From positions 1 through 49,297 of the forward strand of contig NZ_JAUTDR010000031.1 of assembly GCF_030649675.1 (NCBI RefSeq): DNA of 49,297 nt, in the 5' to 3' direction. Below the pieces are notes generated by a model. The model was given only the letters and a program-made list of their open reading frames with translations, was not told the DNA's origin and did no database searches. A program made the position numbers and the translations under genes. The stretch comes from Haliea sp. E1-2-M8 (lineage in GTDB: Bacteria > Pseudomonadota > Gammaproteobacteria > Pseudomonadales > Halieaceae). Below, in pieces: positions 15,004 to 36,534 of the stretch; the first letter of the stretch is position 1; each line of letters begins with the position of its first letter.

Positions 15004-15357
15004 ATGCACACAATAGCAATCTGCCGTACGTGTCCGCGGGATACGCCGCAAAGTGGCACCTTCGGATTGGAGCTACGGGCCGAATTGCGCACCAGGCTGG
15101 CTGACGACGGGCCAAGCATAATGATGGTGCAGTGCCTGGGGAGTTGCCGGAAACCATGCGGAGTCGCATTTGATGCACCCAACAAGGCACGTATTCGCTT
15201 ATCCGACATTGCTGTACAGGACGCGGGCCTGCTGACACAGGCCGCGCGCAACTACGTGCATTTTGGCACCGCACTGTCCAGCCTCAATGTCTTTCCGATG
15301 GCACTTCGATCTAGAATTAGTGCCATAGCACCGAAACATGCCATGGTAGGAAAATGA
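15004..15357 (+). CDS. DUF1636-family cysteine-rich metal-binding protein
   Basis: The protein (117 aa) has Cys7 and Cys10 (ICRTC) and Cys44, Cys48 and Cys52 (QCLGSCRKPCGVAF), followed by a KARIRLSDI strand and a QAARNYVHFG helix. This pattern is typical of DUF1636, predicted to bind a metal or an iron-sulfur cluster; its function is unknown. The arrangement resembles the thioredoxin-like ferredoxin fold. ATG 15004 is preferred over TTG 14995, with AGGA about 10 bases upstream. It overlaps the next gene by ATGA, so it is translationally coupled to the hydrolase. A redox or metal-delivery role for the operon is possible but is inference. Confidence 0.75.
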   Translation: MHTIAICRTCPRDTPQSGTFGLELRAELRTRLADDGPSIMMVQCLGSCRKPCGVAFDAPNKARIRLSDIAVQDAGLLTQAARNYVHFGTALSSLNVFPMALRSRISAIAPKHAMVGK

Positions 15358-16235
15358 ACGACCAGATCGTCTACGCGAATTTTACTCAGGCTGAACTCGA
15401 CGCTCAGTACAACAATAGAGCGCGCTTTCCCGACTACGAGACTCATTTCGCCAGCTGGACGAAGTGGAGTGCAGCGACACGCGATAAGCTGCCCTGTAAT
15501 CTTGACGTTTCCGTTGGCGAAACACCGTTTGAACGCATCGATATTTTCCCGTCGCCTGCGAAATTGGCGCCGATTTATGTGTTTATAAAAGGTGGGTATT
15601 GGTATTCCCTTGATAAAAGTCACTACAGCTACGTGGCCGAGGGGATGCGACCACACGGGATTACTACGGTTACCAACAATTTCGGTTTGGCGCCCGTTCA
15701 CGACATGGACACGATCGTGGAACACAATCGATCAGCGCTGGCGTGGCTTTGGCGGCATGCAGATGAGATAGGCGCCGATCGCAATCGAATCTACATCGGC
15801 GGGCATTCGGCAGGCGGCCATCTCGGCATGATTTTATTGGGTACTGACTGGCCATCGGTCGATCCTTCCCTGCCACAGAACCTTGTCAAAGGGGTCTGTT
15901 CAATTGGGGGATTGCACGATCTGGAGCCAATCCGAAAATCACTCATTAATCAGAAGTTGCACCTCACAGAAGAGCAGGCCAAGCGTCACAGCCCGGTAAA
16001 TCTCGAATTTCCGATCTCCGCGCCATTGTTGCTCGTGACTGCGGTCGATGAGTCGCCGGAACTCCACCGCCAATCCCTAATCATGAAAGAAGTCTGGGAG
16101 AAATATGGCTATCCCGTAGAGATGATAGAGCCGCCAGGCCTCGATCACTTCAGTGTCGTGAACAACCTTGGCGATCCCGATTCCCTGCTGGTTCTACGCC
16201 AACTCGAGCAGATGCGCTATGCATTCTCCATTTAG
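15354..16235 (+). CDS. alpha/beta hydrolase of the esterase/kynurenine formamidase type
   Basis: The protein (293 aa) has an oxyanion motif KGGYWYSLDKS at residues 79-89, the nucleophile elbow GGHSAGGH with Ser152, an acid at VDES (Asp232 or Glu233), and His265 in GLDHFSV. The GGYW..LDKS block is characteristic of arylformamidases and related amide or ester hydrolases. The usual first His of HGG is Lys79 here, which may change oxyanion geometry or substrate charge preference. It is the second gene of the plus-strand operon, overlapping DUF1636 by 4 bp. Hydrolysis of an aryl formamide, ester or lactone in the pathway is plausible; the substrate is unknown. Confidence 0.8.
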   Translation: MNDQIVYANFTQAELDAQYNNRARFPDYETHFASWTKWSAATRDKLPCNLDVSVGETPFERIDIFPSPAKLAPIYVFIKGGYWYSLDKSHYSYVAEGMRPHGITTVTNNFGLAPVHDMDTIVEHNRSALAWLWRHADEIGADRNRIYIGGHSAGGHLGMILLGTDWPSVDPSLPQNLVKGVCSIGGLHDLEPIRKSLINQKLHLTEEQAKRHSPVNLEFPISAPLLLVTAVDESPELHRQSLIMKEVWEKYGYPVEMIEPPGLDHFSVVNNLGDPDSLLVLRQLEQMRYAFSI

Positions 16236-16295
16236 GCGGGAATTAATCGCCGTAGCGCATGCAATCCGCACCCAACCATCGGGAATGTTATCACA

Positions 16296-17099
16296 ATGAA
16301 TAGCAACGACATGCAACATCTGAGTGAAGACCGTGATCACATAGCCGCGAAACTGCGAATAGCCGTGCGCGATCGAGCATTGATTGAGCCGGTACGCAAT
16401 GAGATCAGTGACCCATCCGACGCACTGGCAAAATCAATCCAACGCGCGAACATAGATTTTTGGGTTAAAGAAGGACGGCGGATTGTTGGCAGCAAAGTCG
16501 GTATTACATCCCGCGCGGCTCAGGAGCAATTCGGTATTGACTCACCCGCTTACGGCACTCTTTTCGCAGATATGGTCGAAACGGATGGCGCATCTATCGA
16601 TGCAAATGTTGTCTCGCAGTTGCGAGTAGAAGCTGAAATCGCTTTTGTTCTTAACTCCGATATCGACAACCCCAATACAACTATAGTCGACGTAATTAGC
16701 GCTATCGACTATGGGTTGCCGGCAATAGAGCTTGTCAGCTCGCGCATTCGGGACTGGGACTTAAAGTTGTTCGACTTTATCGCAGATAATGCAGCGGCCA
16801 GTATGATCGTGCTGGGGGAGACACCTTTCGATATTCAATCCTGCGATGTACGCACGCTGGGTACAGTTACGACCATCAATGGCAATCATCGATCTTTTGG
16901 TAGTGGCGGAGCGTATTTGGGAAGTCCATTGCAATCGCTACTTTGGCTCGCGCGCGAACGAGTCACCGATGGCAACCCTCTCCGTCGTGGAGAAGTCGTC
17001 ATGACCGGCGCACTGGGACCCATTATATCGTCAGGCAAAGGTGCATTCATTGATGTCCGCATCGGCCATCTGCCACCGGTGATAGTTGAGATCACTTGA
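16296..17099 (+). CDS. 2-keto-4-pentenoate hydratase-like protein (MhpD type, FAH superfamily)
   Basis: The protein (267 aa) matches the MhpD/2-oxo-hept-3-ene-1,7-dioate hydratase group. GSKVGITS near residue 66 and the metal-site RVEAEIAFVL near 110 lead the fold. Then come AIDYGLPAIELVSSRI near 140, IADNAAASMIVLG near 165, the GGAYLGSPLQSLLWLA segment near 205, and VMTGALG near 235. These enzymes add water to, or cleave, 2-hydroxydienoates and 2-oxo acids made in meta-cleavage pathways. It lies between the alpha/beta hydrolase and the amidohydrolase on the plus strand. The real substrate here is unknown, and no ring-cleavage dioxygenase is in the window. Confidence 0.85.
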   Translation: MNSNDMQHLSEDRDHIAAKLRIAVRDRALIEPVRNEISDPSDALAKSIQRANIDFWVKEGRRIVGSKVGITSRAAQEQFGIDSPAYGTLFADMVETDGASIDANVVSQLRVEAEIAFVLNSDIDNPNTTIVDVISAIDYGLPAIELVSSRIRDWDLKLFDFIADNAAASMIVLGETPFDIQSCDVRTLGTVTTINGNHRSFGSGGAYLGSPLQSLLWLARERVTDGNPLRRGEVVMTGALGPIISSGKGAFIDVRIGHLPPVIVEIT

Positions 17100-17138
17100 G
17101 GCATCGGGATTTTTCGACCTATTTTTAGGAGAGACTTC

Positions 17139-18440
17139 ATGAATCCACAATTGTTCACGAACATCCAGATTTTTGATGGAACTGGCAGTGATTGCTTTCC
17201 AGGGGAAGTTCTTGTCGAAGGCAACCGGGTCACTGCCGTCAGTCATGGCAGCAACATGCTCGGCCGAGACCCGGGTATCGACGTTATCGATGGCCGGGGG
17301 ATGACGCTGATGCCCGGGTTAGTCGAAGCGCATGCGCATGTTACCTACAGCAATATGGTGCACCTGAAAGAGATGGGTGAGATTCCGATTGAGGAGCATA
17401 CGATACTCGGGTTGGAGAACATGAAACTGATGCTAGATTCGGGCTTTACAAGCCTGTATTCGGCCGCGTCGTCGAAAATGCGCCTTGAGGTGTCACTCCG
17501 AAACGCAGTCGATGCCGGTAGATTTGCTGGCCCGAGAATGCGCGCTGCAAGTCCAGAGATAGTAGCAACGGGTGGCCTGGGTGACGACAATCAGTTGCAT
17601 ATGCATCATCAGGGCATCGAAGTGGTCGCTGACGGAGCCGATGAGATCCGGAAGATGGTACGCTTGCTCATCCGCGAGGGCGTCGACACGATCAAACTCA
17701 ACATATCGGGCGACAATTTCAAGCGTAAGGACTTTGGTCGTCAATTGTCCTATACAGAAGAGGAAGTAGCCGCCGCCGCCGAAGTCGCACATGAGCGCGG
17801 GGCCTGGCTGTCATGCCATGCTCGCGCCGATGCAGCCGTGAGGCTCGCGTTGAAATACAACTTCCGTTGCATCTACCACCTCGACTTTATCGAAGGAGAG
17901 ACATTTGACCTGCTCGAAGAAAAGCGAGATTCCATTTTTCTTGCACCGGCCATAGGCATAATATATACGACCGCATATGAAGCCGGGCCCTGGGGTATCA
18001 CTGAAGAAGTAGCGCACCACATGGATATGTTCGGGATGCTGGAAACCGCCCCGCAAGTATATGCCGAACTAAAAAAACGAGGGATGCGAATACTGCCGGG
18101 GGGTGACTATGGCTTCGCGTGGAATCCAATGGGAACAAATGCACGCGACCTGGAACACTTCGTAAATATACTCGGCTTCACACCCAACGAAGCGCTTATG
18201 GCCGCGACCAAGTGGGGCGGAGAGATTATGGATATCCCCAACCTCGGTCTGGTAAAGGAGGGCTACCTGGCAGACCTGATTATGGTTGATGGCAACCCCG
18301 TTGAAAATATTAAGCTTTTTCAGGATCGGGATAATATACGAATGGTGATGAAGGACGGCGTGTATTACAAGCGAGACTCGGGAGAGCAGATAGCGACCGT
18401 AACCGTTGCCGCCTCCACCAAATCGGTCTGGGAACCCTGA
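17139..18440 (+). CDS. metal-dependent amidohydrolase, paralogue 1 (COG1228 type)
   Basis: The protein (433 aa) is an amidohydrolase-superfamily TIM barrel with an N-terminal beta-sandwich part. Metal ligands are visible: His65 and His67 (EAHAHVTY), Lys186 (DTIKLNISGD, probably carboxylated), His227 (LSCHARAD), His247 (IYHLDF) and Asp323 (GGDYGFAWNP). This binuclear Zn set is that of imidazolonepropionase-like enzymes, Xaa-Lys/Arg carboxypeptidase-type prolidases and ochratoxinase, which cut C-N amide bonds. GDYGFAWNPMGTNARDLE is shared, with small changes, by the paralogues at 26038 and 30537. AGGAGA precedes ATG 17139. No signal peptide is seen, so it is cytoplasmic. The bond cleaved is unknown. 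Confidence 0.88.
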   Translation: MNPQLFTNIQIFDGTGSDCFPGEVLVEGNRVTAVSHGSNMLGRDPGIDVIDGRGMTLMPGLVEAHAHVTYSNMVHLKEMGEIPIEEHTILGLENMKLMLDSGFTSLYSAASSKMRLEVSLRNAVDAGRFAGPRMRAASPEIVATGGLGDDNQLHMHHQGIEVVADGADEIRKMVRLLIREGVDTIKLNISGDNFKRKDFGRQLSYTEEEVAAAAEVAHERGAWLSCHARADAAVRLALKYNFRCIYHLDFIEGETFDLLEEKRDSIFLAPAIGIIYTTAYEAGPWGITEEVAHHMDMFGMLETAPQVYAELKKRGMRILPGGDYGFAWNPMGTNARDLEHFVNILGFTPNEALMAATKWGGEIMDIPNLGLVKEGYLADLIMVDGNPVENIKLFQDRDNIRMVMKDGVYYKRDSGEQIATVTVAASTKSVWEP

Positions 18441-18460
18441 TCTGCCGTGAAGGAACGAAA

Positions 18461-18514
18461 ATGAAACTCGGAAATGCAGACTATGCCAGCGCGCATCCAG
18501 GCGAGGTTACTTGA
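18461..18514 (+). CDS. possible 17-residue minicistron
   Basis: ATG at 18461 follows AAGGAACGAAA, a strong ribosome-binding site, and opens MKLGNADYASAHPGEVT ending at TGA 18512-18514, two bases before the ATG of the next gene. It could be a leader peptide that couples translation of the dehydrogenase, or the truncated start of a lost gene. It is too short to judge by codon use. Confidence 0.35.
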   Translation: MKLGNADYASAHPGEVT

Positions 18515-18516
18515 CA

Positions 18517-19464
18517 ATGAAAGCTCTTCTGCACTTTCGTGCGAGCGATTTTTTAGCTCGGCGGATGCGACAAAGAATGCCGTCGTGGCTGGAACTGGCG
18601 ATTGTCGACCCCGAGGACGAGGCAGGCATAAAGGAGCAACTTTTAGACACGGACGTCCTGTTTCACGTATTGGCGCCCGCTGACCGAGCCCTGATGTCGC
18701 TGGCGCCGAATCTCAAGTTGATTCAGAAAATCGGCGTCGGAATCAATACCATTGATCTTGATGAGGCGCATCGCAGGGGTATTCTGGTTGCCAACATGCC
18801 GGGCACCAACAGCCAGGCAGTGGCTGAAATGACTCTCGGCTTGATGCTGACTGCCATGCGCAAGATCGTGACCTTCGATCAGGCGACCCGAAACGGGCAA
18901 GGGTGGAGCTTGTCGCCAGAGACCATGGACGACGTCGGAGAAATAGGTGGAAAGGTGGTCGGGCTGATTGGATTTGGCGCCGTTCCTCAACGCCTCGCAC
19001 CAGCCTTGACGGCATTGGGCGCGAAGGTCATTTATTGCGACCGCCGAGCGTCAGCCAGCCCAAATGGCGAGCGCGTTCCAATGGACGATCTCATTCGTCG
19101 AGCCGATATCATATCGTTGCATGTTCCGTTGACGCTTGAAACGCAAGCCATGATCGGCCACGTGCAGCTTGAAAAGATGAAAAAGGGTGTCATACTCGTA
19201 AACACGGCGCGAGGCGAGCTGATTGATGAACAAGCTCTCTACGGCAATCTCGTATCAAGACATGTTCGTTGCGTAGGTCTCGACGTATTGAATACAGAGC
19301 CTGCATGTAGTGACAATCCATTATTCACACTCCCGAATGTCATTGTCACACCACACGTATCTTGGCTTACTTTGGAAACAATCGAGCGAAGCCTCACGGT
19401 CGCGGTGGAGAACTGTCAATTGCTCCTGAACGGATCCCCCCTCATCCATCAGGTGCCTACTTGA
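18517..19464 (+). CDS. D-isomer-specific 2-hydroxyacid dehydrogenase
   Basis: The protein (315 aa) has the split catalytic domain of the family around a Rossmann domain: GLIGFGAVPQRLAPAL near residues 152-167, an NAD-binding CDRR at about 179, the catalytic Arg in NTARGELIDE near 230, Glu in DVLNTEPA near 260, and His in VTPHVSWLT near 285. These enzymes interconvert 2-oxo and D-2-hydroxy acids with NAD(H). Asp in CDRR argues for NAD over NADP. ATG 18517 is chosen because GAGG lies about 10 bases upstream. It is fifth in the plus-strand operon, before lacI, and may reduce or oxidise the 2-oxo acid formed by the FAH-fold step. Confidence 0.88.
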   Translation: MKALLHFRASDFLARRMRQRMPSWLELAIVDPEDEAGIKEQLLDTDVLFHVLAPADRALMSLAPNLKLIQKIGVGINTIDLDEAHRRGILVANMPGTNSQAVAEMTLGLMLTAMRKIVTFDQATRNGQGWSLSPETMDDVGEIGGKVVGLIGFGAVPQRLAPALTALGAKVIYCDRRASASPNGERVPMDDLIRRADIISLHVPLTLETQAMIGHVQLEKMKKGVILVNTARGELIDEQALYGNLVSRHVRCVGLDVLNTEPACSDNPLFTLPNVIVTPHVSWLTLETIERSLTVAVENCQLLLNGSPLIHQVPT

Positions 19465-19535
19465 GCACAGTGGCGGAAAATGGACAATATGCACCCATAT
19501 TTGCTTACCACCACTGAAACCGACCGTTTATTGCC

Positions 19536-20549: not shown

Positions 20550-20595
20550 CCCCTCAAATCTTCGTTCGCCGCGGCTCATCCAATAAATCGGCACA

Positions 20596-21429
20596 CTACT
20601 CCACGCGGTTTCGTAAAACTCCTATACCGTCTATTTCGGCTTCCACGAGGTCGCCGCGCTGCAGAAACCGACCCGAACCAAGGCCAACGCCTGTTGGTGT
20701 ACCCGTAAAAATTATATCTCCCGCTTCAAGGCTCGATCGCTGATCAGAAAATCGGAGCAGTTCGGCAATAGTCCACGTCATTTCTCCTGTGTTCCCATCT
20801 TGTCGGATGTCTCCATTCACACTCAGTTTCATCCGGAATTTCGGCTGCCCTTCCGAAAATTCGTCAGTCGTAACGATCCACGGCCCAACGCCACAGGTAC
20901 GATCTTGGCTTTTCGCTCCCAAAAGATCCATGCTGATGTCTCTCGGACCGAGCATCTGCAGATCGCGTGCACTAACGTCGTTACCCACAGCATAGCCGAG
21001 CACACAAGAGAGCGGATCAGCATGATCAATACGATGCGAACCCACAACGACCACCAGTTCAACCTCGTAGTCTAATTGTGTCGTCAGCGGTGGATAGCGA
21101 ATCGGATCATTGGCCCCAATAAGCGCACCGTAGGCTTTCAGGAAAACTACCGGCTGCTCAGAGGCTCTTAGATCAATTTCTGCAAGATGTTGCGCATAGT
21201 TTCCACCCACGACCTCCACCTTACTAGTTTTCTCTACGGGCGGCAGCAGCCGAACGTCTGCCAGCGACAACTCACTATCGTCCAGTTCTAGAACTTTGAC
21301 ATCCTTTCCGTGCGTGAATTTGGGAGCCCAGGAAGAAAAGTTCCCACGAATTTCACGCAAAGTCCTGCGTTCAATATCAACTGACGCCCAAAATATTCTG
21401 TCTCCTTCACTACATCGAGCAATACGCAT
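20596..21429 (-). CDS. fumarylacetoacetate hydrolase-family protein 1
   Basis: The protein (277 aa) has the FAH fold. VVGGNYAQHLAE near residue 73 replaces the common VGLNY..HA motif. DYEVELVVVVG near 117 supplies Glu metal ligands, and GNDVSARDLQ near 145 the Asp-containing loop. GDIIFTGTPTGVGLG near 245 and GDLVEAEIDGIGVLRN end the domain. Members are C-C hydrolases, decarboxylases, isomerases or lyases of 2-oxo acids. ATG 21429 is preferred to TTG 21438. It is the promoter-distal gene after the MFS gene (98 bp gap) and has the TAAACACGTTAGTTTA motif upstream, so it may also have its own promoter. Confidence 0.88.
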   Translation of the reverse strand: MRIARCSEGDRIFWASVDIERRTLREIRGNFSSWAPKFTHGKDVKVLELDDSELSLADVRLLPPVEKTSKVEVVGGNYAQHLAEIDLRASEQPVVFLKAYGALIGANDPIRYPPLTTQLDYEVELVVVVGSHRIDHADPLSCVLGYAVGNDVSARDLQMLGPRDISMDLLGAKSQDRTCGVGPWIVTTDEFSEGQPKFRMKLSVNGDIRQDGNTGEMTWTIAELLRFSDQRSSLEAGDIIFTGTPTGVGLGSGRFLQRGDLVEAEIDGIGVLRNRVE

Positions 21430-21484
21430 ACCAGGCAACCCTATGAGACAAAGAAAACATAGTTAATTTTTCTTCGTTATTATA

Positions 21485-21500: not shown

Positions 21501-21526
21501 TTTCTATACACCGAAAATCCAGCACA

Positions 21527-22756
21527 TCAACGGTGCTTTACGGCAGGATTGAACGTGATCGCGAAAATAATCAGCACAACAATGGAAAAGATCGAAGGCA
21601 ACATCCAAAAAATACGGAATTGTTCACCAGTCAATGCTGCTGCGTCCCCGAGGAATAGATTATAGACAGAGCCTGCAACCTGTGCTCCAACAAGCATTCC
21701 CAATCCATAGGTTGCAAAGACAAAAAGACTCTGCGCCTGCGCACGGAACATCGGTGAAGCGTGACGTTCGACGTATATTTGACCGGCGACAAAGAGAAAA
21801 TCGTAGCAAATCCCGTGCAACAGAATTCCAGTTATTATCAGTAAAAGCAGCCCATCCGGCGCTCCAATAGAAAACAGCATGTAACGCAACGCCCACGCAC
21901 CCATGCCAATGGCCAGCACCCACTTGACACCAAGTCGCCGGAAACAAAGCGGAAGGAGTAACATGAAAAATGCTTCCGACATCTGGCCGAGACTCTGCAT
22001 CGCGGCAATGTTTCGGAACCCCCGTGTCTCAAGAAATATCTGTGTGAAGTTGTAGTATGCTGCTAACGGAATACAGATCAGGATCGAACTGAAAAGAAAT
22101 ACATAAAATGATGGACTTCCGAGAGACCTCAGTGCGTCCCAACCCAGTATGCCACCAATCGATAGCGGCATTCCTTTTGCGGACGGCGGAGTCGCGGGCA
22201 ACGTGAAACTGAAGAACCCAAGGATCAATGCCGCTACTCCCGACAGATACAGCGGTAGCGGCGTTCGTTCAGGGATAACATCTGCAGTAAACCAAACAAG
22301 GACAAAACTAATTATCAACCCCGCAACAATCCAGCCCAAAGTTCCGAACACCCGGATGAGCGGAAACTGTTTCTCCGGTTCCGCAGTGTGAAAAAAAACC
22401 AGCGAGTTCGCAAGTGCGAGTGTCGGCATAAAACAAAGATTGAACACAAATAGAAGACTGATGAAAACTATTGGGGTTCCTGAGGCCTGCGGCGTTAACA
22501 GCATGAAGACGCCTGCCATCAAGAGTAGTACGCCAAGCATCTTTTGTGTCTGAAATAAGCGGTCCGCAAACAGCCCGAGAAAAAGAGGGCTAGCCATTGC
22601 AGCAATCGGCGTAACGGTGTACGGCCAGTGCGTTAGATTTTCCATCCCATGATTGCGCATGTACACTGCAACCGTCGTATACCAGGCACCCCATATGAAA
22701 TATTGCAAGAACATCAGAATACGCAGCTTAATTACGATAGTAATCGACAGGGGCAT
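21527..22756 (-). CDS. MFS transporter of the nucleoside:H+ symporter (NHS) type
   Basis: The protein (409 aa) is very hydrophobic, with about 12 membrane segments. The N-terminal LRILMFLQYFIWGAWYTTVA and SPLFLGLFADRLFQTQKMLG (loop 2-3) are characteristic of NupG/XapB-like symporters, as is LIRVFGTLGWIVAGLI. It sits in the inner membrane and should import the pathway substrate or an intermediate. NHS-family proteins known in E. coli carry nucleosides; in island settings like this one the substrate could be another ring-bearing polar compound. ATG 22756 follows AGAGGA. It is downstream of the TauE/SafE gene by 39 bp. Confidence 0.85.
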   Translation of the reverse strand: MPLSITIVIKLRILMFLQYFIWGAWYTTVAVYMRNHGMENLTHWPYTVTPIAAMASPLFLGLFADRLFQTQKMLGVLLLMAGVFMLLTPQASGTPIVFISLLFVFNLCFMPTLALANSLVFFHTAEPEKQFPLIRVFGTLGWIVAGLIISFVLVWFTADVIPERTPLPLYLSGVAALILGFFSFTLPATPPSAKGMPLSIGGILGWDALRSLGSPSFYVFLFSSILICIPLAAYYNFTQIFLETRGFRNIAAMQSLGQMSEAFFMLLLPLCFRRLGVKWVLAIGMGAWALRYMLFSIGAPDGLLLLIITGILLHGICYDFLFVAGQIYVERHASPMFRAQAQSLFVFATYGLGMLVGAQVAGSVYNLFLGDAAALTGEQFRIFWMLPSIFSIVVLIIFAITFNPAVKHR

Positions 22757-22795
22757 TTCTATCAATCCTCTGATAATATCTTGCAGTGGCTTATC

Positions 22796-25194: not shown

Positions 25195-25986
25195 TCAATT
25201 CGATAATCTGTCCGCCGATCCGCCAAAATAAAAATTGAGCATCGCTTGATTGACTTCGAACGGCCTTTCAATTGGGGTCCAATGGCCAGTACGGCTGAAA
25301 ACCAGCGCACTCGAATCAGGAATCCGCCTAGCAAGTTCTTGTGTATTGACAGGCGGCCCAACCGGATCTTCGTCACCGGTTAATAGAAGCGTTGGACACC
25401 GCACGCGCTCGACTTCAGCGGCCTTCGCCCCCGCTAACGCCTCGCATGTCCTAGCATATCCCTCTGCGCTCTGGCGCATCAGAATCTCTCGAACCATGGC
25501 AGCTACTGTCGGCTGATTTGCTCGCGTATCTTCTGAAATAGACACGCCGACCATTGCGTCTGCAATGGGCACCATACCTTCGTTTCGAGCCAGTACAGCA
25601 CGGTCAGCTAAGGCCTTGCGCGCAGGTGGCGGAGGTTCAGCCAAAGGGCCCATGAGCAGCATACTGCGCACCCGAGTGCTGTGCGAAACCGCCAGATGCT
25701 GGCATACGATAGTTCCCATAGAATGGCCGACCAGGTGCGCGGATTCGATATCCAGTGCATCAAGTAGTGCCACCATATCCTCCACGAACCCATCTATCGA
25801 TGGTGTTCCGTTCAGTGGAGATCGCGCGGACCCGTTCAGATCAGGGCAAATGACATTGAAATTTCTGGCAAGCATGCGACACTGGCCGAACCAGGTGTTA
25901 CTTGAGCCGCCCAGGCCATGAATCATGAGGACGGCTTCGCCTTCGCCATGCTGCTCGACAGCGAGCTCCTTTCCGTTTACTTTCAT
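25195..25986 (-). CDS. alpha/beta hydrolase (enol-lactonase or esterase-like)
   Basis: The protein (263 aa) has the oxyanion HGLGGSSNTW at residues 23-32, the nucleophile elbow GHSMG with Ser89, an acid in LTGDEDPVGP near 210, and the catalytic His in SRTGHWTPIERP near 238. It resembles 3-oxoadipate enol-lactonases and meta-cleavage-product hydrolases. ATG 25986 is chosen over 26031 because GAGGAA precedes it. It is 51 bp after the amidohydrolase gene in the minus-strand operon. It may open a lactone or cleave an ester or C-C bond of the same compound. Confidence 0.88.
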   Translation of the reverse strand: MKVNGKELAVEQHGEGEAVLMIHGLGGSSNTWFGQCRMLARNFNVICPDLNGSARSPLNGTPSIDGFVEDMVALLDALDIESAHLVGHSMGTIVCQHLAVSHSTRVRSMLLMGPLAEPPPPARKALADRAVLARNEGMVPIADAMVGVSISEDTRANQPTVAAMVREILMRQSAEGYARTCEALAGAKAAEVERVRCPTLLLTGDEDPVGPPVNTQELARRIPDSSALVFSRTGHWTPIERPFEVNQAMLNFYFGGSADRLSN

Positions 25987-26037
25987 GGTTAAACATTCCT
26001 CGAGAAATCCGCAGGGTGTCGCTTGTGGCACAAGGAC

Positions 26038-27297
26038 TCATTTGTTGACGTGTGGTTGTCCCGGTTTTTTCCAGAATTCTCCATCCTTCATAACCATCAT
26101 CAGGTTGTCCTTATTCTGCAGAATCGTGATATCCTTGAGCGGATCTCCATTCACCAGCAACAGGTCAGCCAGAAAGCCCTTTTTAACAAGACCGAGATCA
26201 GGGATTTCCATGATTTCCCCGCCGAGCTTGGTAGCTGCACTGAGGGTTTCCGCCGGAGTATACCCGAGCAGCGTAACAAAAAGCTCAAGGTCCCTGGCAT
26301 TGGTTCCTATTGGATTCCAGGCGAAACCGTAATCACCCCCCGGCAGCACGCGGATTCCGCCGTGCTTGCGAATCTTCTCGTACGTCTTTACGGTCATTTC
26401 AACCGTGCGTTTCGCATCCATTTTCTCAACGACCTCGGGTGTGAAACCCCACGGCTCTCCATGATAGGCCAATCGATAGTTTGCGCCGATCGCCGGCGCC
26501 AAGAATATCTTGTCGGATTTTTTTGCCAACAGATCCAGTGTTTCGTCGCGAATAAGTTCGCAATGGTAAAGTACCTTGAAGTCGTACTTCAATGCGAGCC
26601 GAACTGCTTTGTCCGCTCGGCAGTGAGTGGAAAGCCATACCCCTCGCTCATGTGCCTCTTCTGAAGCAGCACGGACTTCCGCCTCCGAATATGTACAGAC
26701 GCCGTCCTGGCCTGCATGTACAAAGTTATCGCCGGAAATATTTACCTTGATCGTATCAACGCCTTCTCGTATGCACAGGCGAACTTTTCGTGTGATGTCG
26801 TCGACACCGTCGGCGACTATCTCGATACCCTGTTTGTCCCAGTGCAGCTGTCGGCCATCGCCCAAGCCACCCGTAGATACAAATTCCGGCGAAGCCGCGC
26901 GGAATCGCGGGCCCTTGATACGGCCAGCGTTGATTTCGTTGCGAACGACGACTTCGGTACGGATCTTTGAAGACGCGGCTGAATACAAACTCGTGAATCC
27001 CGCATCGAGCATTTTGTGGGCATTGTGCATGCACACAAAGACGTGCTCTTCTGGCGGTACCGCCGCAAGCTCATCGAGCGTAGCCATGTTGGGATAGGTG
27101 ATATGGGCATGCGCTTCACACATCCCCGGCATCAGGGTTGCACCCTTGCCGTCGATGACTTCAGCACCTTCTCCCTTGATCTTTCCCGAGCCCTTCGCTA
27201 CCGCGGTTATGCGCTGGCCTTCGACCATAACTTCACCAGGAAACAATGCTGATCCGCTACCGTCAAATATAGAAACGTTTTTAAAAAGTACAGGCAT
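26038..27297 (-). CDS. metal-dependent amidohydrolase, paralogue 2 (COG1228 type)
   Basis: The protein (419 aa) is closely related to the enzyme at 17139. His63 and His65 are in EAHAHITYPN, the carboxylated-Lys candidate in DTIKVNISGDNF, His in LSTHCRADKAV and YHCELI, and Asp in GGDYGFAWNPIGTNARDLE. The run AGFTSLYSAASSK is identical in both. ATG 27297 is preferred because AGGAGGGA lies just upstream; the longer frame from 27330 lacks this. It follows the TonB receptor gene by 75 bp and precedes the alpha/beta hydrolase. The metal set predicts C-N bond hydrolysis; it carries no export signal. Confidence 0.88.
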   Translation of the reverse strand: MPVLFKNVSIFDGSGSALFPGEVMVEGQRITAVAKGSGKIKGEGAEVIDGKGATLMPGMCEAHAHITYPNMATLDELAAVPPEEHVFVCMHNAHKMLDAGFTSLYSAASSKIRTEVVVRNEINAGRIKGPRFRAASPEFVSTGGLGDGRQLHWDKQGIEIVADGVDDITRKVRLCIREGVDTIKVNISGDNFVHAGQDGVCTYSEAEVRAASEEAHERGVWLSTHCRADKAVRLALKYDFKVLYHCELIRDETLDLLAKKSDKIFLAPAIGANYRLAYHGEPWGFTPEVVEKMDAKRTVEMTVKTYEKIRKHGGIRVLPGGDYGFAWNPIGTNARDLELFVTLLGYTPAETLSAATKLGGEIMEIPDLGLVKKGFLADLLLVNGDPLKDITILQNKDNLMMVMKDGEFWKKPGQPHVNK

Positions 27298-27372
27298 ATC
27301 ACATCCCTCCTGATTTGTAAGGTAAAGCAAAATCGCTTCTGGCGTTTTCTTCGCTCATTATCAAAGCCCCAG

Positions 27373-29679
27373 TCAAAAATCGTAACTTACAGTAATCCCG
27401 TAGGTCCTTGGATCACTATACCTTGGTCCGAAGGAGGCATTAGTAACTTCGGGATTGGTGCCAATTGTCGGCCCATAGACGGAGAACCAGAAATCCTGAC
27501 CATAGAGAACGACATCCTCGTCTCGCAGGTTCTTGCCCCAAATCTGCAAGCCCCAGCCGTTGTTGAAGTTGAGTCCCATGTTTGCATTGAGCATCCCCTC
27601 AACTTCGCTTCGAAACTGCGGTATGGAGTTATCCATAAACTCGAGGCTGTACTCGTCCTTCACAAGATAGTCGACATGAAAATAGAGTTCACCGAACGCC
27701 AAGTCAGTGACATAGTCTGCACTGAAGATGTAGCTGTTGGGGACAGTGCCCTGTGGTGGTGTACCCTCTGGAATCTCTGCCTCGGGTGGGATATCCTTGG
27801 AATCCCCTTCTTGGTGACTGTAGGAAAAGTTGAGGGTCAATGCATCTGTCGCTGCCCAGGTCAATTCGACTTCCACACCCTGCACTGTAGCCTCGCCAGC
27901 ATTTGTCGTGGCGGAGGCCCCACCGGCTCCAATTGCGTTCACATAAAACTGCAGGTCTTCATAAGTGGTGTCGAATACTGCGACATTGAACTGCACGCGG
28001 TTGGAAGCGAAGCGCGACTTGAAGCCGACTTCAAGATTGGTGACCGTTTCCGGATCCACGGGCAAATCGATAAGATCTCCATCCGACTGGGTCATGTCGT
28101 AGGCGCCACTCCGGAATCCAGTTGAAACAGAACCATATAACAGGATATTGTCAGTTGGTTTGTAGTCGAGTGCGGCGCGCCAAGTGACTTCTCCCCAGTC
28201 AGCTGAATTGCGGAAGCTCTCTCCCGGCCGTGGGTTCCATGACCAGTCATACTCATCCGTTGTCGTTCCGCGCAGCTTTTTCTCATCGTGGGTATAGCGT
28301 GCACCTAGAGTCAGCGATAGATCAGTATCAAAATCATAGGTTCCCTGAGCGTATACTGAGTAACTGGTAGTCTTGACATTCTCGACAGTATTGAAATTGT
28401 TCTCGTCGAACAGACCAGGGTGGCTGATCAGGCAGGAAGGGGTAACCACGAAGTTCTCGAAATCTTCCAGCGTCTGAGTCGGGCATCCAGAAATTGCTGA
28501 GAATGCGCCTGCGGCAGTGGAATCGTCCCATCGCGTGGTCACTTCAAGAAATCGGGTGTCATCGTTGTGCAGTAGATACACACCACCCTGCCAATTGAAC
28601 GCGGAATCATAGTCCGAAATTAGACGGAACTCCTGAGTGAACGACTTGATGTCCCGCTCATCAGCGATCGCAAAAATCGGGGTTGGCAGTCCGCCAAGAT
28701 TCTCTGGCTCCTGCTCAACATCGAAGAGACGGCCGGTAGTAATTGACTCTAGCGTCAAGTTGTTGTTGAGCTGCTTCGCAACATGCAAAGTCCCTACCCA
28801 CTGCTCGCTCACGTACCGGCCGTCCGTGTGCATTTGCACCGTTCGAGTGTCACCGTCGATCCTGAAGTCCTGATCCGCCAGCACGGCAAGGTCAACGAAA
28901 TCAACCGGTGAGGTTGCATCCCGCGCACTTCCGGTCTCGTCTTTGGCGCTATGGCTCAGGCCTAATTTGACTTCAAGAGTGTCCGATAGATCCCAGACCA
29001 GCTTCCCCCGGAAAACCGAAGAGTTCTTGGTGTCAACATCGTTATCGGTCACGCTGTTATAAGACGTCCCATTACGATCCACGGACGACATAGCAATGGA
29101 TCCGGCAAGGTTTGAAGTAATCGGACCGCTGATATAGGCACCAAACCGGTTCAAATTATAGTTGCCCAGAGAGGCCCTGACGCGCCCTTCAAACTCTTCG
29201 CCCGGGTCCTTGGTGACTACATTAATAAGGCCTCCGGTTGTATTCCGACCGAACAAGGTTCCCTGCGGACCGCGCAAAACTTCGATCCGCTCCACGTCAA
29301 ATACGTCTATCTCAAAATCCCCTGCGCCGCCAAAATAGACGTCGTCAATGAACAGGCCGACAGCGTTCTCGGCGCCCGCCGATGCCAGTGACGACGACCC
29401 ACCCCGGAGAGCAGGGTTATTGCGAGATTTAGAGAATGAATTAATGCTGAATCCCGTAATCTGGGAAGCGAGGTCCTGAAAATTTTCGATCTTTAAAGAT
29501 TCTATCCTTTGATTCGTGAACGCCGTCACCGCTATCGGCACATCTTGCAACGACTCCTGCCTGCGTTCGGCGGTCACGATGACTTCCTCAAGCTGCGCCA
29601 ATGCCGGATTGACCACCAGCATCGCAGTGAAAAAAAACGCACCACTAGCTGCGTAACGCTTACCGGTTAATGTATCCAT
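27373..29679 (-). CDS. TonB-dependent outer-membrane receptor
   Basis: The protein (768 aa) has a signal peptide (hydrophobic FFFTAMLVVNP then ALAQ, cleavage near residue 28). A TonB-box-like EEVIVTAERR follows, then the plug domain (about 45-160, with GLFIDDVYFGGAGDFEIDVF and VLRGPQGTLFGRNTTGGLIN), a 22-strand barrel, and the terminal aromatic in GITVSYDF. It belongs to the large receptor type frequent in marine and sphingomonad-like bacteria, which takes up complex organic molecules rather than only siderophores. It heads the minus-strand operon, with GGGGAAG before ATG 29679. Its presence implies a substrate too large or too rare for porins. Confidence 0.92.
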   Translation of the reverse strand: MDTLTGKRYAASGAFFFTAMLVVNPALAQLEEVIVTAERRQESLQDVPIAVTAFTNQRIESLKIENFQDLASQITGFSINSFSKSRNNPALRGGSSSLASAGAENAVGLFIDDVYFGGAGDFEIDVFDVERIEVLRGPQGTLFGRNTTGGLINVVTKDPGEEFEGRVRASLGNYNLNRFGAYISGPITSNLAGSIAMSSVDRNGTSYNSVTDNDVDTKNSSVFRGKLVWDLSDTLEVKLGLSHSAKDETGSARDATSPVDFVDLAVLADQDFRIDGDTRTVQMHTDGRYVSEQWVGTLHVAKQLNNNLTLESITTGRLFDVEQEPENLGGLPTPIFAIADERDIKSFTQEFRLISDYDSAFNWQGGVYLLHNDDTRFLEVTTRWDDSTAAGAFSAISGCPTQTLEDFENFVVTPSCLISHPGLFDENNFNTVENVKTTSYSVYAQGTYDFDTDLSLTLGARYTHDEKKLRGTTTDEYDWSWNPRPGESFRNSADWGEVTWRAALDYKPTDNILLYGSVSTGFRSGAYDMTQSDGDLIDLPVDPETVTNLEVGFKSRFASNRVQFNVAVFDTTYEDLQFYVNAIGAGGASATTNAGEATVQGVEVELTWAATDALTLNFSYSHQEGDSKDIPPEAEIPEGTPPQGTVPNSYIFSADYVTDLAFGELYFHVDYLVKDEYSLEFMDNSIPQFRSEVEGMLNANMGLNFNNGWGLQIWGKNLRDEDVVLYGQDFWFSVYGPTIGTNPEVTNASFGPRYSDPRTYGITVSYDF

Positions 29680-30078
29680 AATCGCTTCCCCTCACAGTTG
29701 GACCTCGATTTAATACCGCTTTTATTAGCTACGTTCTACTGCCATTCAAGGCACCTAAACCACCAACTCGCAGGCTTGGGCTATTCTCTAGAGCCCTCTG
29801 CTCACCCGGTTGTCAGCTGACAGTTCACAATGCACTGAGCTTCTATGTCGGTTCATGTGTTAATGAACCGCCGTTGGTAATTCTTGCCGCTGCTCTAGAT
29901 TTGCAACTGACATAACGAGATCTCTGTAAGGTAGTCTCAATGCCACCATACACTTCAGCTGAAATAAGGGCTGAAGCAAAACTTCAGTGCCCGATTTCAG
30001 GCTTTCAACCCTGCACGGCCTATGGCGGCACCGTTCATCATTTCCAAATATTATTGTGCATTGGTTCGGCATAGGGTC

Positions 30079-30108
30079 AGTTTAGGTACTGTATATATCT
30101 GTTGTCAA
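30079..30108 (-). promoter_or_regulatory. candidate sigma70 promoter reading toward the TonB operon
   Basis: On the minus strand TTGACA (30108-30103), an 18-bp spacer, then TAAACT (30084-30079). The -35 box is perfect, the -10 box 4 of 6. Confidence 0.4.
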
Positions 30109-30220
30109 GAAAATACCTACTTGGTCGACTTTGATTCTGATACGAGTTAAGCCAAACAACAGATACGAGGCTAACCTACTGTTTTTATGGTAGTTCTCGA
30201 AGAGTAAAGCCGACCGCTTT

Positions 30221-30240
30221 ATAAGAACACGTTAATTATT
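30221..30240. promoter_or_regulatory. ACACGTTA motif upstream of the TonB operon promoter
   Basis: GAACACGTTAATT lies about 115 bp upstream of the candidate -35 box. It shares ACACGTTA with the sites at 5956-5970 and 21485-21500. Confidence 0.35.
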
Positions 30241-30536
30241 ATTGAATCTGGTGTAGGAGAACCAGTGTCGAATGGTTTGGAAAACTTTTTCGGTCCCTTC
30301 GCTACAAGCCCAACGAAACAAGCTTCTTCCCCTGGCACATTCTCGGCTCTGCTAGCAATGTGTTATTCCCGCCAATCTGGCACCTGAAAATCACCATCCC
30401 CTGCCGATTTAACTATTATGAACCAGATCTATTGATTGCCGTTTACAAGAAGCCCAAAATTTGAGCTGCGTTCAACACGCTATCTTTGTCGCGCAGCCCA
30501 TAACCTGGTGGTTTTTTGCTTCTCGTGCTTCCTTAC

Positions 30537-31805
30537 CTACTGGGGAAACTTATGAAACTGGCCATCTTTCATGATTCCATTGATATTCTGTTTCTGCTGT
30601 AGTATCCGCACATCTTTGCTTGGGTCCCCATCTACCAACAACAGGTCCGCGAGATATCCCTCCTTAACTCGACCGAGGCTATCGCCCATACCCATCATCT
30701 CCGCTCCAACTGATGTCGCCGCCACCAACGCTTCAAGCGGCGAGAAGTCAAGCAGCTCAACAAAGTACTGCAGATCGGTGGCATTCGTCCCCATAGGGGT
30801 CCACGCAAACCCGTAATCGCCACCAATCGCGATTCTTACCCCGCGCTTATGCATAGACTTCATCGAAGTGATTGCGGCTCCAAGCTCACACTCATACATT
30901 TTCGCCAGCGCAGTATCTGGCGTCAGTCCAAACTGAGATGCACCACGTGCTGTTTGGTAAAGCCAGGCCAAGCCCGGAGCTACAAAATGTTTTTCTTTTG
31001 CCGCCTCAAGCATGTCCAATGCCTCATCATCTGCATAGGACGCATGGTAGATATTGCGAATACCATGACGTATACATTGCTTAATAGAATCTGCCGAGCG
31101 GGCATGGGCACTCACCATTTTTTTACGCTTTAATGCCTCGTCGCATGCTGCAGCGACTTCCTCGTCTGTAAAAGGAGTTGCTTCCGCCGGGGTTGGTGTA
31201 AGATCTTCTCCCGAAAGGTTTAACTTGATGACGTCGTTGCCGTATTTGATCATGCGTCGCACGCCGGCACGCATTTCATCGGTCCCTGTAACGATCGTCC
31301 CAAAGGTCAGCGCGTCTAGCTCAATATGAGGCGGCGAAGTGTCACCGAGTCCACCGATAGTAGTGAACTCTGGCGATGCAGCCAAATAGCGCGGACCGGG
31401 AATTGCGCCACTATTGATTGCGTCTCGAATAACAACATCCAATCTTGGTTTTGCAGCAGCTGCTCCAAGCCCAGATGTAAAGCCTGCATCAAGTACAATT
31501 TTGGCCGACGCTATACATGACAGGACATGTTCTTCAACGGGCATCCACATGATCGCTTCCAAGGATGAAGCGTTGTTCCACGACAAGTGGAGGTGCGCGT
31601 CAATCATACCCGGCATTAGGGTGCGGCCACAGCCGTCAATAGCTATTGTTCCCGTTGGAATCGGCACGTCTTCACGCATCACTTTGCTGATTCGGTTTCC
31701 CTCAACGAGCACAGAACCTGCAAAAAGATCCGCGCCACTTCCATCGAAGATATTGACGTTTTTAAACACGACCCCATTTGCATTTTTATTCCTATTTTCG
31801 TCCAT
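30537..31805 (-). CDS. metal-dependent amidohydrolase, paralogue 3 (COG1228 type)
   Basis: The protein (422 aa) has the same layout as the other two but is more divergent. His71 and His73 are in DAHLHLSW, the Lys candidate in DVIKLNLSGEDL, His in VSAHARSADSI and YHASYADDE, and Asp in GGDYGFAWTPMGTNATDLQ. The SAASSK segment of the others is AAAAK here, so specificity probably differs. ATG 31805 is chosen because GGAG lies seven bases upstream, inside the longer frame that begins at 31817. It lies 530 bp downstream of FAH gene 2 on the same strand and may share a transcript with it. Confidence 0.87.
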   Translation of the reverse strand: MDENRNKNANGVVFKNVNIFDGSGADLFAGSVLVEGNRISKVMREDVPIPTGTIAIDGCGRTLMPGMIDAHLHLSWNNASSLEAIMWMPVEEHVLSCIASAKIVLDAGFTSGLGAAAAKPRLDVVIRDAINSGAIPGPRYLAASPEFTTIGGLGDTSPPHIELDALTFGTIVTGTDEMRAGVRRMIKYGNDVIKLNLSGEDLTPTPAEATPFTDEEVAAACDEALKRKKMVSAHARSADSIKQCIRHGIRNIYHASYADDEALDMLEAAKEKHFVAPGLAWLYQTARGASQFGLTPDTALAKMYECELGAAITSMKSMHKRGVRIAIGGDYGFAWTPMGTNATDLQYFVELLDFSPLEALVAATSVGAEMMGMGDSLGRVKEGYLADLLLVDGDPSKDVRILQQKQNINGIMKDGQFHKFPQ

Positions 31806-32090
31806 ACATAGCTCCATCAGAATCTTAGCAAAGAGTTTTTATTTCTGGCAGTTTAGTGCGTTCATGGAAATTTATAGAAGCTTCTTGATCTTGCTTTTTG
31901 AGTACACATACGCCTTCCGACTCTCGGTCAGTATCCACATTTCTCAATGGCACCTGCAATCTTCGTCACCGCGCTATCTACGATTATGTCTGCAAGCTAT
32001 CCCGCGCAACTCCCGGATATCCTTTAAGCACCCCAAACAAGCTCATGGTCAGGGTACGATTTGATTTCCTTTTAGCCATACGCTGTATGA
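31806..32090. other. spacer between small ORF and amidohydrolase 3
   Basis: No gene is supported. A plus-strand frame at about 31940-32110 reads AIYDYVCKLSRATPGYP and has a protein-like look, but I could not assign it; it may be a decayed fragment. Confidence 0.3.
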
Positions 32091-32339
32091 TCATAATTGA
32101 CCTATCATGAGAATGCGATCCATATGCTGTTCTTTGAAATTAGACTCGACTAGGTAGGCAGGGCCACTATTACCGGGAAATACAGAACCTAGAATGCCCA
32201 CAATCCGATGCTGCCTGTATTTGAGTTTTCTGACTGGAAAGACGTTGTCGCTTGAGTAACCGAATCCATTAATAACAAGCATGGCGTCATGCCTACCACG
32301 TACTCTAATTGAGCAGCCGACTTTTTCGTATCGCGTCAA
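32091..32339 (-). CDS. possible small protein coupled to FAH gene 2
   Basis: A TTG-initiated 82-codon frame overlaps the FAH stop codon in a TTGA arrangement, which would allow translational coupling. The product is basic, with CSIRVRGRHDAMLVINGFGY and a GSVFPGNSGPAYLVESNF segment, and has no signal peptide or membrane span. I recognise no family. It could equally be the decayed C-terminus of a lost gene, or chance. Confidence 0.3.
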   Translation of the reverse strand: MTRYEKVGCSIRVRGRHDAMLVINGFGYSSDNVFPVRKLKYRQHRIVGILGSVFPGNSGPAYLVESNFKEQHMDRILMIGQL

Positions 32340-33220
32340 GACAGCCGCTCCTCTGAAGATACAAACATGTTTTCCAGTACACCAATGCCCTCTATCTCCA
32401 CCCTGACCACATCTCCAGATTGAAGATAGCGCGGTGGACTGAAGCCGATACCCACCCCTGCCGGCGTACCTGTAGCAATAAGATCGCCCGGATAAAGTGT
32501 GATTCCTCGCGATATTGTCGAAATAAGTTCAGGCACGTCGAATATGAGCGCGGATGTATTAGATGATTGCCTAAGGTCGTTGTTTACCCAGCAACGCACG
32601 GCGGTGTCACCAAGATCGAGCTCATCGCGCGTCACGGCAATAGGACCCATTGGACAAAAACTGTCCTGTGATTTGCCTATTAGCCACTGACTATGTAGCT
32701 TCTGCAGATCTCTGGCAGTCACGTCGTTCACGATAGTGTAGCCCCAGACGTGATCAAGGGCTGATGCCCGACTAATCCCTCGCCCGCCTTTACCGATAAT
32801 CACACAAAGCTCAGCCTCATAATCGATTGCCTTGCTGACGGTCGGATCGATGATTACATTATCACCGTGTGCGACGACCGTTTCTGGAAGTTTTGAGAAT
32901 ACGATGGGCGCGCTAGGGATGGCACCCTGAGCAGCACCAGAATCGAATCCGGAGCCAGAAAACTCATGGGCATGTTCAACGTAGTTCTTGCCAACGCAGA
33001 TGATATTCCGGCGCGGGCGAGGAATGGGGGCGAGTAAGGTAACGGCACCCAATTCGACATGAACACCAGTAGGCTCAGGGGCCTTGGTCGACTCGATCAG
33101 ATTGACGATACCCAGCTCAGGATCGCCATCGAATTGCGACAAGACCGTGATAGTGGAATTCTCACCGTTTACTATTCCGATGCTGATTTTTTCGCCTTGG
33201 CGGAAAGTGACGTACCTCAT
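32336..33220 (-). CDS. fumarylacetoacetate hydrolase-family protein 2
   Basis: The protein (294 aa) has ICVGKNYVEHAHEF near residue 74 (the canonical VGLNY..HA position). DYEAELCVIIGKGGRGI near 123 supplies the Glu ligands, VNDVTARDLQ near 150 the Asp, and PGDLIATGTPAGVGIGF near 245. This is closer than FAH 1 to ureidoglycolate lyase/acylpyruvase-like members. ATG 33220 is preferred because GGGGAG is just before it inside the frame from 33232. It is divergent from the GntR gene at 33463, with operator-like repeats between them. It should act on a 2-oxo acid or beta-diketone intermediate. Confidence 0.88.
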   Translation of the reverse strand: MRYVTFRQGEKISIGIVNGENSTITVLSQFDGDPELGIVNLIESTKAPEPTGVHVELGAVTLLAPIPRPRRNIICVGKNYVEHAHEFSGSGFDSGAAQGAIPSAPIVFSKLPETVVAHGDNVIIDPTVSKAIDYEAELCVIIGKGGRGISRASALDHVWGYTIVNDVTARDLQKLHSQWLIGKSQDSFCPMGPIAVTRDELDLGDTAVRCWVNNDLRQSSNTSALIFDVPELISTISRGITLYPGDLIATGTPAGVGIGFSPPRYLQSGDVVRVEIEGIGVLENMFVSSEERLS

Positions 33221-36533: not shown

Positions 36534-36534
36534 G

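What the first reader, a model, noticed from the sequence alone, without database searches (positions are those of the whole stretch)
15004..33220. Three amidohydrolase plus FAH-fold pairs in one island: a candidate undescribed catabolic system
Seen: three paralogous COG1228-type amidohydrolases (17139, 26038, 30537) share the GGDYGFAW block, and each sits in a set with a different FAH-superfamily gene (16296, 20596, 32336). Added are a Ser-Ser-Lys amidase, two alpha/beta hydrolases, a TonB receptor, an NHS-type MFS transporter, a TauE/SafE transporter and a hydroxyacid dehydrogenase. Known: these amidohydrolases cut C-N bonds, and FAH enzymes act on 2-oxo acids. Inference: one pathway imports a multi-amide or lactam-like compound and processes three variants or three successive positions by the same two-step logic. 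I know no described pathway with this gene set.
Basis: partly seen in the sequence, partly recalled or inferred. Interest (0 to 1): 0.85.

Follow-up and report, generated by a model that had tools for sequence, protein, structure and literature searches.

The report
Mobile amidohydrolase-FAH catabolic operon, expanded threefold
This stretch is an acquired island for breaking down an unknown small molecule, built around a compact set of three hydrolase-type genes that recurs, often on plasmids, in distantly related bacteria and whose substrate is not known.

Summary
Three intact paralogous amidohydrolases with GGDYGFAW each sit in an operon-like set with a different FAH-fold gene. The pairing is not chance: around family members, FAH genes are about eight times denser within 4 kb than beyond 5.5 kb. 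The amidohydrolases closest to AH30537 (52.8% identity or more; cut chosen after seeing the data) have a FAH and an alpha/beta hydrolase within 4 kb in 21 of 21 cases, order FAH-abh-AH in 18 of 19 loci, GntR regulator near in 14. These 19 are Pseudomonadota; the trio recurs in Actinomycetes at 46-53% and, looser, in Bacillota. The window's copy has a decayed alpha/beta hydrolase between FAH32336 and AH30537. The proteins keep all six metal ligands but lack the GGH histidine of solved relatives. The two amidohydrolase types were not found together in another locus, so 'one pathway, three variants' is unproven. The described kpi genes (4-hydroxypyridine) use the same four protein families; orthology could not be tested. 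Left of the finding lies a second recurrent unit: an APH-fold kinase with an enolase paralogue altered at two active-site residues (13 of 13 distinct sequences).

The parts
17139..18440 (+). AH17, GGDYGFAW-family amidohydrolase-fold protein (clade II)
26038..27330 (-). AH26, GGDYGFAW-family protein (clade II)
30537..31817 (-). AH30, GGDYGFAW-family protein (clade I, the FAH-abh-AH module type)
32336..33232 (-). FAH32, FAH-fold enzyme of the clade I module
31990..32312 (-). decayed alpha/beta hydrolase between FAH32 and AH30: two colinear pieces (about 32199-32312 and 31990-32103) in different frames
   Evidence: 12.9 bits against a best of 8.6 in 1000 shuffles, second piece 7.7 bits; coordinates worked out by hand
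33457..34170 (+). GntR33, FCD/GntR regulator divergent from FAH32
25195..26031 (-). abh25, intact module-type alpha/beta hydrolase (55% to that of Azospirillum argentinense)
23629..25113 (-). amidase-signature enzyme
   Evidence: PF01425 323 bits
22796..23608 (-). TauE/SafE transporter
21527..22765 (-). nucleoside-H+-symporter-type MFS transporter
20596..21438 (-). FAH20, last gene of the AH26 set
27373..29679 (-). TonB-dependent receptor, first gene of the AH26 set
15354..16235 (+). abh15, HSL/BD-FAE-type esterase
   Evidence: 67% in L009
16296..17099 (+). FAHh16, hydratase-class FAH-fold gene
18511..19464 (+). DHD18, D-2-hydroxyacid dehydrogenase
   Evidence: 48-49% next to enolase paralogues in L178 and L179
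19536..20549 (+). LacI-type regulator
12282..13298 (-). APH12, APH-fold kinase, partner of the enolase paralogue
13326..14678 (-). Eno13, enolase paralogue with Ala and Asp at two active-site positions

Best explanation
The window carries an acquired catabolic island in which one enzyme logic is present three times. Shown: the AH30 set is a copy of a recurrent gene block (often FCD/GntR regulator, then FAH, alpha/beta hydrolase, GGDYGFAW amidohydrolase); its own alpha/beta hydrolase is decayed, and an intact one of the same kind (abh25) sits in the neighbouring AH26 set. Inferred: a compound imported by the TonB receptor and MFS carrier is opened at an amide, ester or ring bond by the amidohydrolase-fold metalloenzyme, the alpha/beta hydrolase takes off an acyl or formyl group or opens a lactone, and the FAH enzyme cleaves or decarboxylates the resulting 2,4-dioxo or beta-keto acid to pyruvate plus a small acid, much as KpiC, KpiB and KpiD are proposed to act on 4-hydroxypyridine. 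The AH17 set probably hands a 2-oxo acid to DHD18, APH12 and Eno13 (reduction, phosphorylation, dehydration to a PEP-type product).
For: Plasmids: of the 17 records with at least 44.8% identity to AH30, 13 were examined and 12 have FAH, alpha/beta hydrolase and amidohydrolase together; the miss is Rhodococcus opacus. 21 of 21 amidohydrolases of at least 52.8% identity have both partners within 4 kb (L134 was reached through its FAH). Sampled genomes: 3 of 3 at 59-61% in 398 Pseudomonadota, and the three best genomes of 394 Actinomycetes (one of the three, G038, was the chosen centre). Decayed abh at the expected place. All six metal ligands in 99 of 99. Six of 8 APH12 relatives adjacent to an enolase paralogue, the other two within 8 kb of one and beside a hydroxyacid dehydrogenase and PEP carboxylase. 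Same four families in kpi. Island GC 0.48-0.54 against 0.61-0.67 in eight 4 kb stretches of the genome, seven around other amidohydrolases and one around its other enolase.
Against: No substrate is known; transporters beside the module differ (branched-chain-type ABC, sugar-type ABC, MFS), so the compound may differ too. 5 of 6 loci selected by FAH32 similarity lack the amidohydrolase and abh25-type gene in the stretch held, among them L132, the best FAH32 plasmid match at 62.5%. KpiC was not held, and the A1 profile reaches enamidase, the nearest characterised relative of KpiC in that paper, only at E 0.005 over the N-terminus, which argues against close kinship. abh25 is only 23% identical to the PydB-like hydrolase of Rhizobium CB3060. 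The sets were not found together elsewhere. FAHh16 has no counterpart in the closest AH17 locus L009.
Confidence: 0.5

Rival explanations
1. kpi-type ring opening: the GGDYGFAW proteins are metal-dependent ring-cleaving enzymes of hydroxypyridone-like compounds, as reported for KpiC; abh deformylates, FAH cleaves formylpyruvate to pyruvate and formate.
For: Same four protein families and FadR regulator in kpi; Rhizobium CB3060 from Leucaena has GntR, extradiol dioxygenase, alpha/beta hydrolase, ABC and a FAH 48% identical to FAH32; GGH histidine lost; formate dehydrogenase genes follow at 34489.
Against: KpiC orthology untested; no flavin monooxygenase or NCS1 permease among the 30 window proteins scanned with Pfam; PydB-like hydrolase only 23% like abh25; all six metal ligands kept, as in hydrolases; the formate dehydrogenase DNA has high GC, with a second copy elsewhere, and looks separate.
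Confidence: 0.2
2. Ordinary peptide scavenging: the amidohydrolases are prolidase/carboxypeptidase relatives cutting N-acyl amino acids or dipeptides, and FAH genes only tidy oxaloacetate-like by-products.
For: Best solved relatives include a prolidase, Xaa-Pro dipeptidase, arginine carboxypeptidases and ochratoxinase; best NCBIfam model Xaa-Pro dipeptidase; FAH32's best solved relative is 8sky, recalled to be YisK.
Against: Score 212-223 bits against a cut-off of 500; GGH histidine replaced and the residue two after the third His is Arg in 96 of 99; tight association with an alpha/beta hydrolase and FAH.
Confidence: 0.2
3. Three unrelated catabolic operons gathered by mobile elements; the shared amidohydrolase family reflects a generally useful enzyme, not one pathway.
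For: Types not joined in other loci; transposase and integrase-core genes at 914 and 6647; the AH17 set resembles a separate Baikal locus with APH, enolase, two alpha/beta hydrolases and DHD.
Against: AH17 and AH26 are 60% identical; abh25 is module-type while the AH30 set has lost its own, which suggests dependence between sets.
Confidence: 0.3

Closest known systems
kpi cluster of Arthrobacter sp. IN13 (4-hydroxypyridine; PMC7356986: abstract, sections 17, 19, 20 and passages read)
   Same: FadR-type regulator, amidohydrolase_1 protein (KpiC), alpha/beta hydrolase (KpiB), FAH (KpiD)
   Different: kpi adds a flavin monooxygenase and a purine/cytosine-type permease; KpiC is 475 aa and nearest to enamidase; sequence not held, orthology untested
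Locus of Rhizobium sp. CB3060 from Leucaena (L130); that it is the mimosine (pyd) locus is inferred
   Same: GntR, ring-opening enzyme, alpha/beta hydrolase, ABC importer, FAH 48% identical to FAH32
   Different: ring opener annotated as extradiol dioxygenase, not amidohydrolase; hydrolase 23% identical
COG1228-type prolidases, carboxypeptidases and ochratoxinase (3mkv, 3feq, 3mtw, 4c5y)
   Same: sequence relatives; six metal ligands conserved in the family (that these are the ligands is recalled)
   Different: GGH histidine (in 3mkv, 3mtw and two others aligned) replaced by Leu, Arg in place of Tyr/His two after the third His, longer loop around GGDYGFAW, operon with FAH
YisK/FAHD-type FAH enzymes
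   Same: FAH32's best solved relative by sequence is 8sky, 245 bits; that 8sky is YisK is recalled
   Different: operon context; FAH32 activity untested
Canonical enolase
   Same: Eno13 passes TIGR01060 (461 against 300 bits)
   Different: Ala for the His of SHRSGE and Asp for the Glu of QEF in 13 of 13 distinct sequences; a second, canonical enolase lies elsewhere in the genome

Membership tests
kpi-type 4-hydroxypyridine module | FadR regulator + amidohydrolase_1 + alpha/beta hydrolase + FAH together | tested here: met
   at the level of protein families; in the window the AH30 set's own alpha/beta hydrolase is decayed and abh25 is 4.5 kb away
kpi-type 4-hydroxypyridine module | flavin monooxygenase KpiA and purine/cytosine-type permease KpiP | tested here: not met
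   none among the 30 window proteins scanned with Pfam; genes elsewhere in the genome were not searched
kpi-type 4-hydroxypyridine module | amidohydrolase orthologous to KpiC | not testable with these tools
   record MT469879 not held; indirect: A1 profile hits enamidase at E 0.005 only
COG1228 prolidase/carboxypeptidase | six metal ligands HxH, K, H, H, D | tested here: met
   99 of 99
COG1228 prolidase/carboxypeptidase | histidine of GGH (its role as a substrate-analogue contact is recalled) | tested here: not met
   Leu in 92 of 99, the other 7 Phe, Val, Ala, Met, Glu, Asn or gap; GGH in the four aligned structures
COG1228 prolidase/carboxypeptidase | NCBIfam Xaa-Pro dipeptidase cut-off | tested here: not met
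   212-223 bits against 500
FAH superfamily, hydrolase/decarboxylase branch (FAH20, FAH32) | FAA_hydrolase domain over cut-off | tested here: met
   197 and 237 bits
GGDYGFAW clade I module (defined here) | FAH and alpha/beta hydrolase within 4 kb on the same strand | tested here: met
   21 of 21 relatives at 52.8% identity or more; below that 6 of 100 have both. In the window: FAH32 intact, own alpha/beta hydrolase decayed, abh25 in the next set
canonical enolase (Eno13) | His of SHRSGE and Glu of QEF | tested here: not met
   Ala and Asp in 13 of 13 distinct paralogues, window's own included; own canonical copy has His and Glu
four-carbon acid sugar pathway (OtnK, OtnC) | NCBIfam cut-offs | tested here: met
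   OtnK 590/350 and OtnC 320/250 bits for 10040 and 11323; not tied to the amidohydrolase sets

The most novel reading that the evidence does not exclude
The GGDYGFAW proteins are a functionally new branch of the amidohydrolase fold that starts a widespread, mobile three-enzyme degradation route for a still unknown natural compound; and the neighbouring kinase-enolase pair is a phosphorylative dehydratase acting on a 2-hydroxy acid other than 2-phosphoglycerate, which would be an enolase of shifted substrate.
Probability: 0.3. Interest if true: 0.75.

Novelty: new variant of a known kind. Interest (0 to 1): 0.55.

Why it matters
A compact set of genes that keeps its composition from Azospirillum to Corynebacterium plasmids probably does one defined job. 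Two paper searches with all terms found nothing; of the listings I opened two papers, and nothing I saw names a function for this amidohydrolase type. Its isolation on a small plasmid stretch (for example Paraburkholderia caledonica) makes a clean growth and enzyme test possible. If the kpi analogy holds, some proteins annotated as amidohydrolases may be ring-opening enzymes. The enolase paralogues bear on whether the enolase group has only one reaction.

Tried and rejected
Riboflavin/lumichrome catabolism (PMC12746152, passages read): that cluster has an unassigned FAH and metallohydrolase but no matching set in what I saw; dropped. Orthology to the PydB-like hydrolase of CB3060: 23% identity, rejected. 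GntR33 or GntR5 as orthologue of the CB3060 regulator: E 2e-4 and 2e-7 only. A kpi-like locus in Actinomycetes: 14 loci were fetched of the 116 genomes with a match, and the flavin monooxygenase query matched none of them. A gene in the 857 bp between AH30 and the TonB receptor: the abh profile gives 0.8 bits (shuffles were made of the other gap only), and held ORFs match at E 0.003 or worse. TonB receptor as conserved partner: only 25-28% matches. Sigma-70 and terminator scans gave no more than chance. FAH20's nearest plasmid relatives (58% and 56%, Massilia putida and Caulobacter) lie near shorter amidohydrolases in other degradation clusters; not pursued. Paper searches gave none with all terms for enolase with APH kinase.
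Full report
CHECK. The window is a whole contig (G000:C25) of a 4.84 Mb genome in 94 contigs. From the gaps they form three sets: (i) abh15-FAHh16-AH17-DHD18-LacI19 on +; (ii) TBDR27-AH26-abh25-amidase-TauE-NHS-FAH20 on -; (iii) FAH32 and AH30 on -, with the FCD/GntR gene 33457 divergent. FAHh16 is nearest the hydratase class; FAH20 and FAH32 are classical FAH proteins, 38% identical. GC of the region is 0.48-0.54 against 0.61-0.67 in eight 4 kb stretches around other amidohydrolases and the other enolase. None of seven same-genus genomes has a close copy (best E 4.4e-37). Transposase-type genes lie at 914 and 6647. This fits acquisition.

THE FAMILY. In a quick tree of 99 sequences AH30 groups with 15 others (one, L091, on a very long branch and from a locus too short to show neighbours), and AH17 and AH26 lie in another part of the tree. 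All 99 keep HxH, K, H, H, D. The GGH of the four aligned solved relatives is GGL in the window proteins; Leu is found in 92 of 99, and Arg stands two after the third His in 96 of 99. Relatives below 250 bits are mixed at the first place (His 15, Ile 13, Leu 9 of 52, some counted twice), so the change marks this family and its cousins. That the His contacts a substrate analogue in the prolidase Sgx9260c is recalled, not read (one search failed).

THE RECURRENT MODULE. Plasmid records with AH30 relatives show FAH, alpha/beta hydrolase and amidohydrolase in one block, most with an FCD/GntR gene: Azospirillum argentinense (two strains), A. brasilense, Cupriavidus metallidurans pMOL30, Paraburkholderia sprentiae and caledonica, Variovorax paradoxus, Pseudomonas oryzihabitans, Pantoea agglomerans, Caballeronia, Cupriavidus P-10 and Corynebacterium occultum. 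Of the 17 records with at least 44.8% identity, 13 were examined; 12 have the block, Rhodococcus opacus does not; four (two C. metallidurans, two Caballeronia) were not opened. Of the nine weaker records (42% or less) six were opened: Alicyclobacillus dauci and Priestia megaterium have FAH, GntR and alpha/beta hydrolase close by, Peteryoungia has a FAH and a hydrolase 7-9 kb on, two Sphingobium have a FAH, Massilia no FAH in the stretch. Over all held loci of 5.5 kb or more, outside the own genome, 21 of 21 amidohydrolases of at least 52.8% identity to AH30 have FAH and alpha/beta hydrolase within 4 kb on the same strand, in 19 loci; order FAH-abh-AH in 18 of 19, GntR within 2.5 kb of the FAH in 14 of 19. 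The cut was set after seeing the table, some strains are near-identical, and L134 was reached through its FAH. Below the cut, 6 of 100 have both and 23 of 100 have a FAH (contig ends cut some). Sampling without regard to context: 6 of 398 Pseudomonadota genomes, own included, pass E 1e-100; the three at 59-61% have the trio, the two at 44-46% do not, though one has a FAH. In 394 Actinomycetes, 116 pass 1e-30; 14 loci were fetched; the three best (46-52%, one in the centre genome itself) have the trio, the other 11 lack the alpha/beta hydrolase and three of those have a FAH. Control for FAH proximity in 77 loci: 2.92 per 100 kb near against 0.37 far. Seen from the FAH side the tie is looser: of six loci taken by FAH32 similarity only L134 has the amidohydrolase, so this FAH type serves other blocks too.

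A DECAYED PART. In the module the alpha/beta hydrolase usually lies between FAH and amidohydrolase. In the window that place, 31818-32335, holds no gene, but a profile of 26 module hydrolases finds a piece of 12.9 bits there, above the best of 1000 shuffles (8.6), and a second of 7.7 bits, same strand and in order. The piece scores are weak alone (E 0.098 in that search); the shuffle test and the position carry the claim. The intact module-type hydrolase abh25 (55% to that of A. argentinense) is in the AH26 set, so the sets may depend on each other; this is inference.

WHAT IT RESEMBLES. Arthrobacter IN13 kpi uses a FadR regulator, FAH, alpha/beta hydrolase and an amidohydrolase_1 protein that converted 3,4-dihydroxypyridine to a product 32 Da heavier, read by its authors as extradiol cleavage; the FAH step was proposed, not shown. 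A plasmid of a Rhizobium from Leucaena has GntR, extradiol dioxygenase, alpha/beta hydrolase, ABC and a FAH 48% like FAH32. These show a way such a trio can work; they do not show membership, since the alpha/beta hydrolase is only 23% alike and KpiC could not be compared. Some FAH enzymes of the FAHD kind act on oxaloacetate (PMC10825186, passages read: tautomerase, little decarboxylase). Formate dehydrogenase genes start at 34489, next to GntR33; formate is a proposed kpi product, but that DNA is GC-rich, has a second copy in the genome and a relative in only 1 of 7 same-genus genomes, so the link is circumstantial.

SECOND UNIT. APH12 and Eno13 lie just left of the finding. Nine of 398 Pseudomonadota genomes, own included, have an APH12 relative at E 1e-50; in 6 of the 8 others an Eno13-like gene is adjacent and in 2, of one genus, it is within 8 kb, there beside a hydroxyacid dehydrogenase and PEP carboxylase. 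Paracoccus seriniphilus has LacI (divergent), APH, eno, FAH, Methylobacterium nodulans eno-APH, the Baikal locus L009 APH-eno with two alpha/beta hydrolases, an AH17 type and DHD. DHD18 relatives (48-49%) adjoin the enolase in L178 and L179. The neighbourhood suggests hydroxypyruvate to glycerate to phosphoglycerate to PEP. Against a plain enolase: 13 of 13 distinct paralogues have Ala and Asp where the own canonical copy has His and Glu (for one, L045, no APH gene lies in the stretch held); that these are catalytic residues (yeast His373, Glu168) is recalled.

VERDICT. A real, recurrent and, in the searches made, functionally unnamed module, tripled in an acquired island; the chemistry is open.

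Noticed in passing
12282-14678: APH-fold kinase and enolase paralogue pair recurs in other genomes with FAH, LacI or hydroxyacid dehydrogenase genes; two active-site residues changed.
   Followed up: partly
8675-11961: LtnD/GarR-like dehydrogenase, OtnK and OtnC: four-carbon acid sugar genes left of the island.
   Followed up: no
2467-4598: A glyceraldehyde-3-phosphate-dehydrogenase-type gene beside an RpiR regulator.
   Followed up: no
34489-47635: High-GC block with formate dehydrogenase, GlcD-type and malate synthase G genes; a second formate dehydrogenase copy (72% DNA identity) is at C1:89341 and 1 of 7 same-genus genomes has a match.
   Followed up: partly
914-1720 and 6647-7225: Transposase and integrase-core genes of insertion elements.
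   Followed up: no
L115 9729-13284 and L088: Two module-type amidohydrolases in one block in Variovorax paradoxus and a Burkholderiales genome.
   Followed up: no
L115, L167, L169: The module can be followed or preceded by a branched-chain-type ABC importer, UPF0261 (ABC-fused in L167 and L169), flotillin and, in L115, PEP-hydrolase-like genes.
   Followed up: partly
L130 1-16876: Rhizobium sp. CB3060 plasmid with a likely mimosine/hydroxypyridone degradation locus.
   Followed up: partly
L132, L135 and L133: FAH32-like genes (56-62%) with an FCD/FadR regulator and TRAP transporter but no amidohydrolase, in Paracoccus, Sagittula and Skermanella plasmids.
   Followed up: no
L127 9989-14912: Sphingobium RAC03 plasmid: amidohydrolase relative with MhpA-like monooxygenase, heme-binding protein, VOC protein and FAH.
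   Followed up: no
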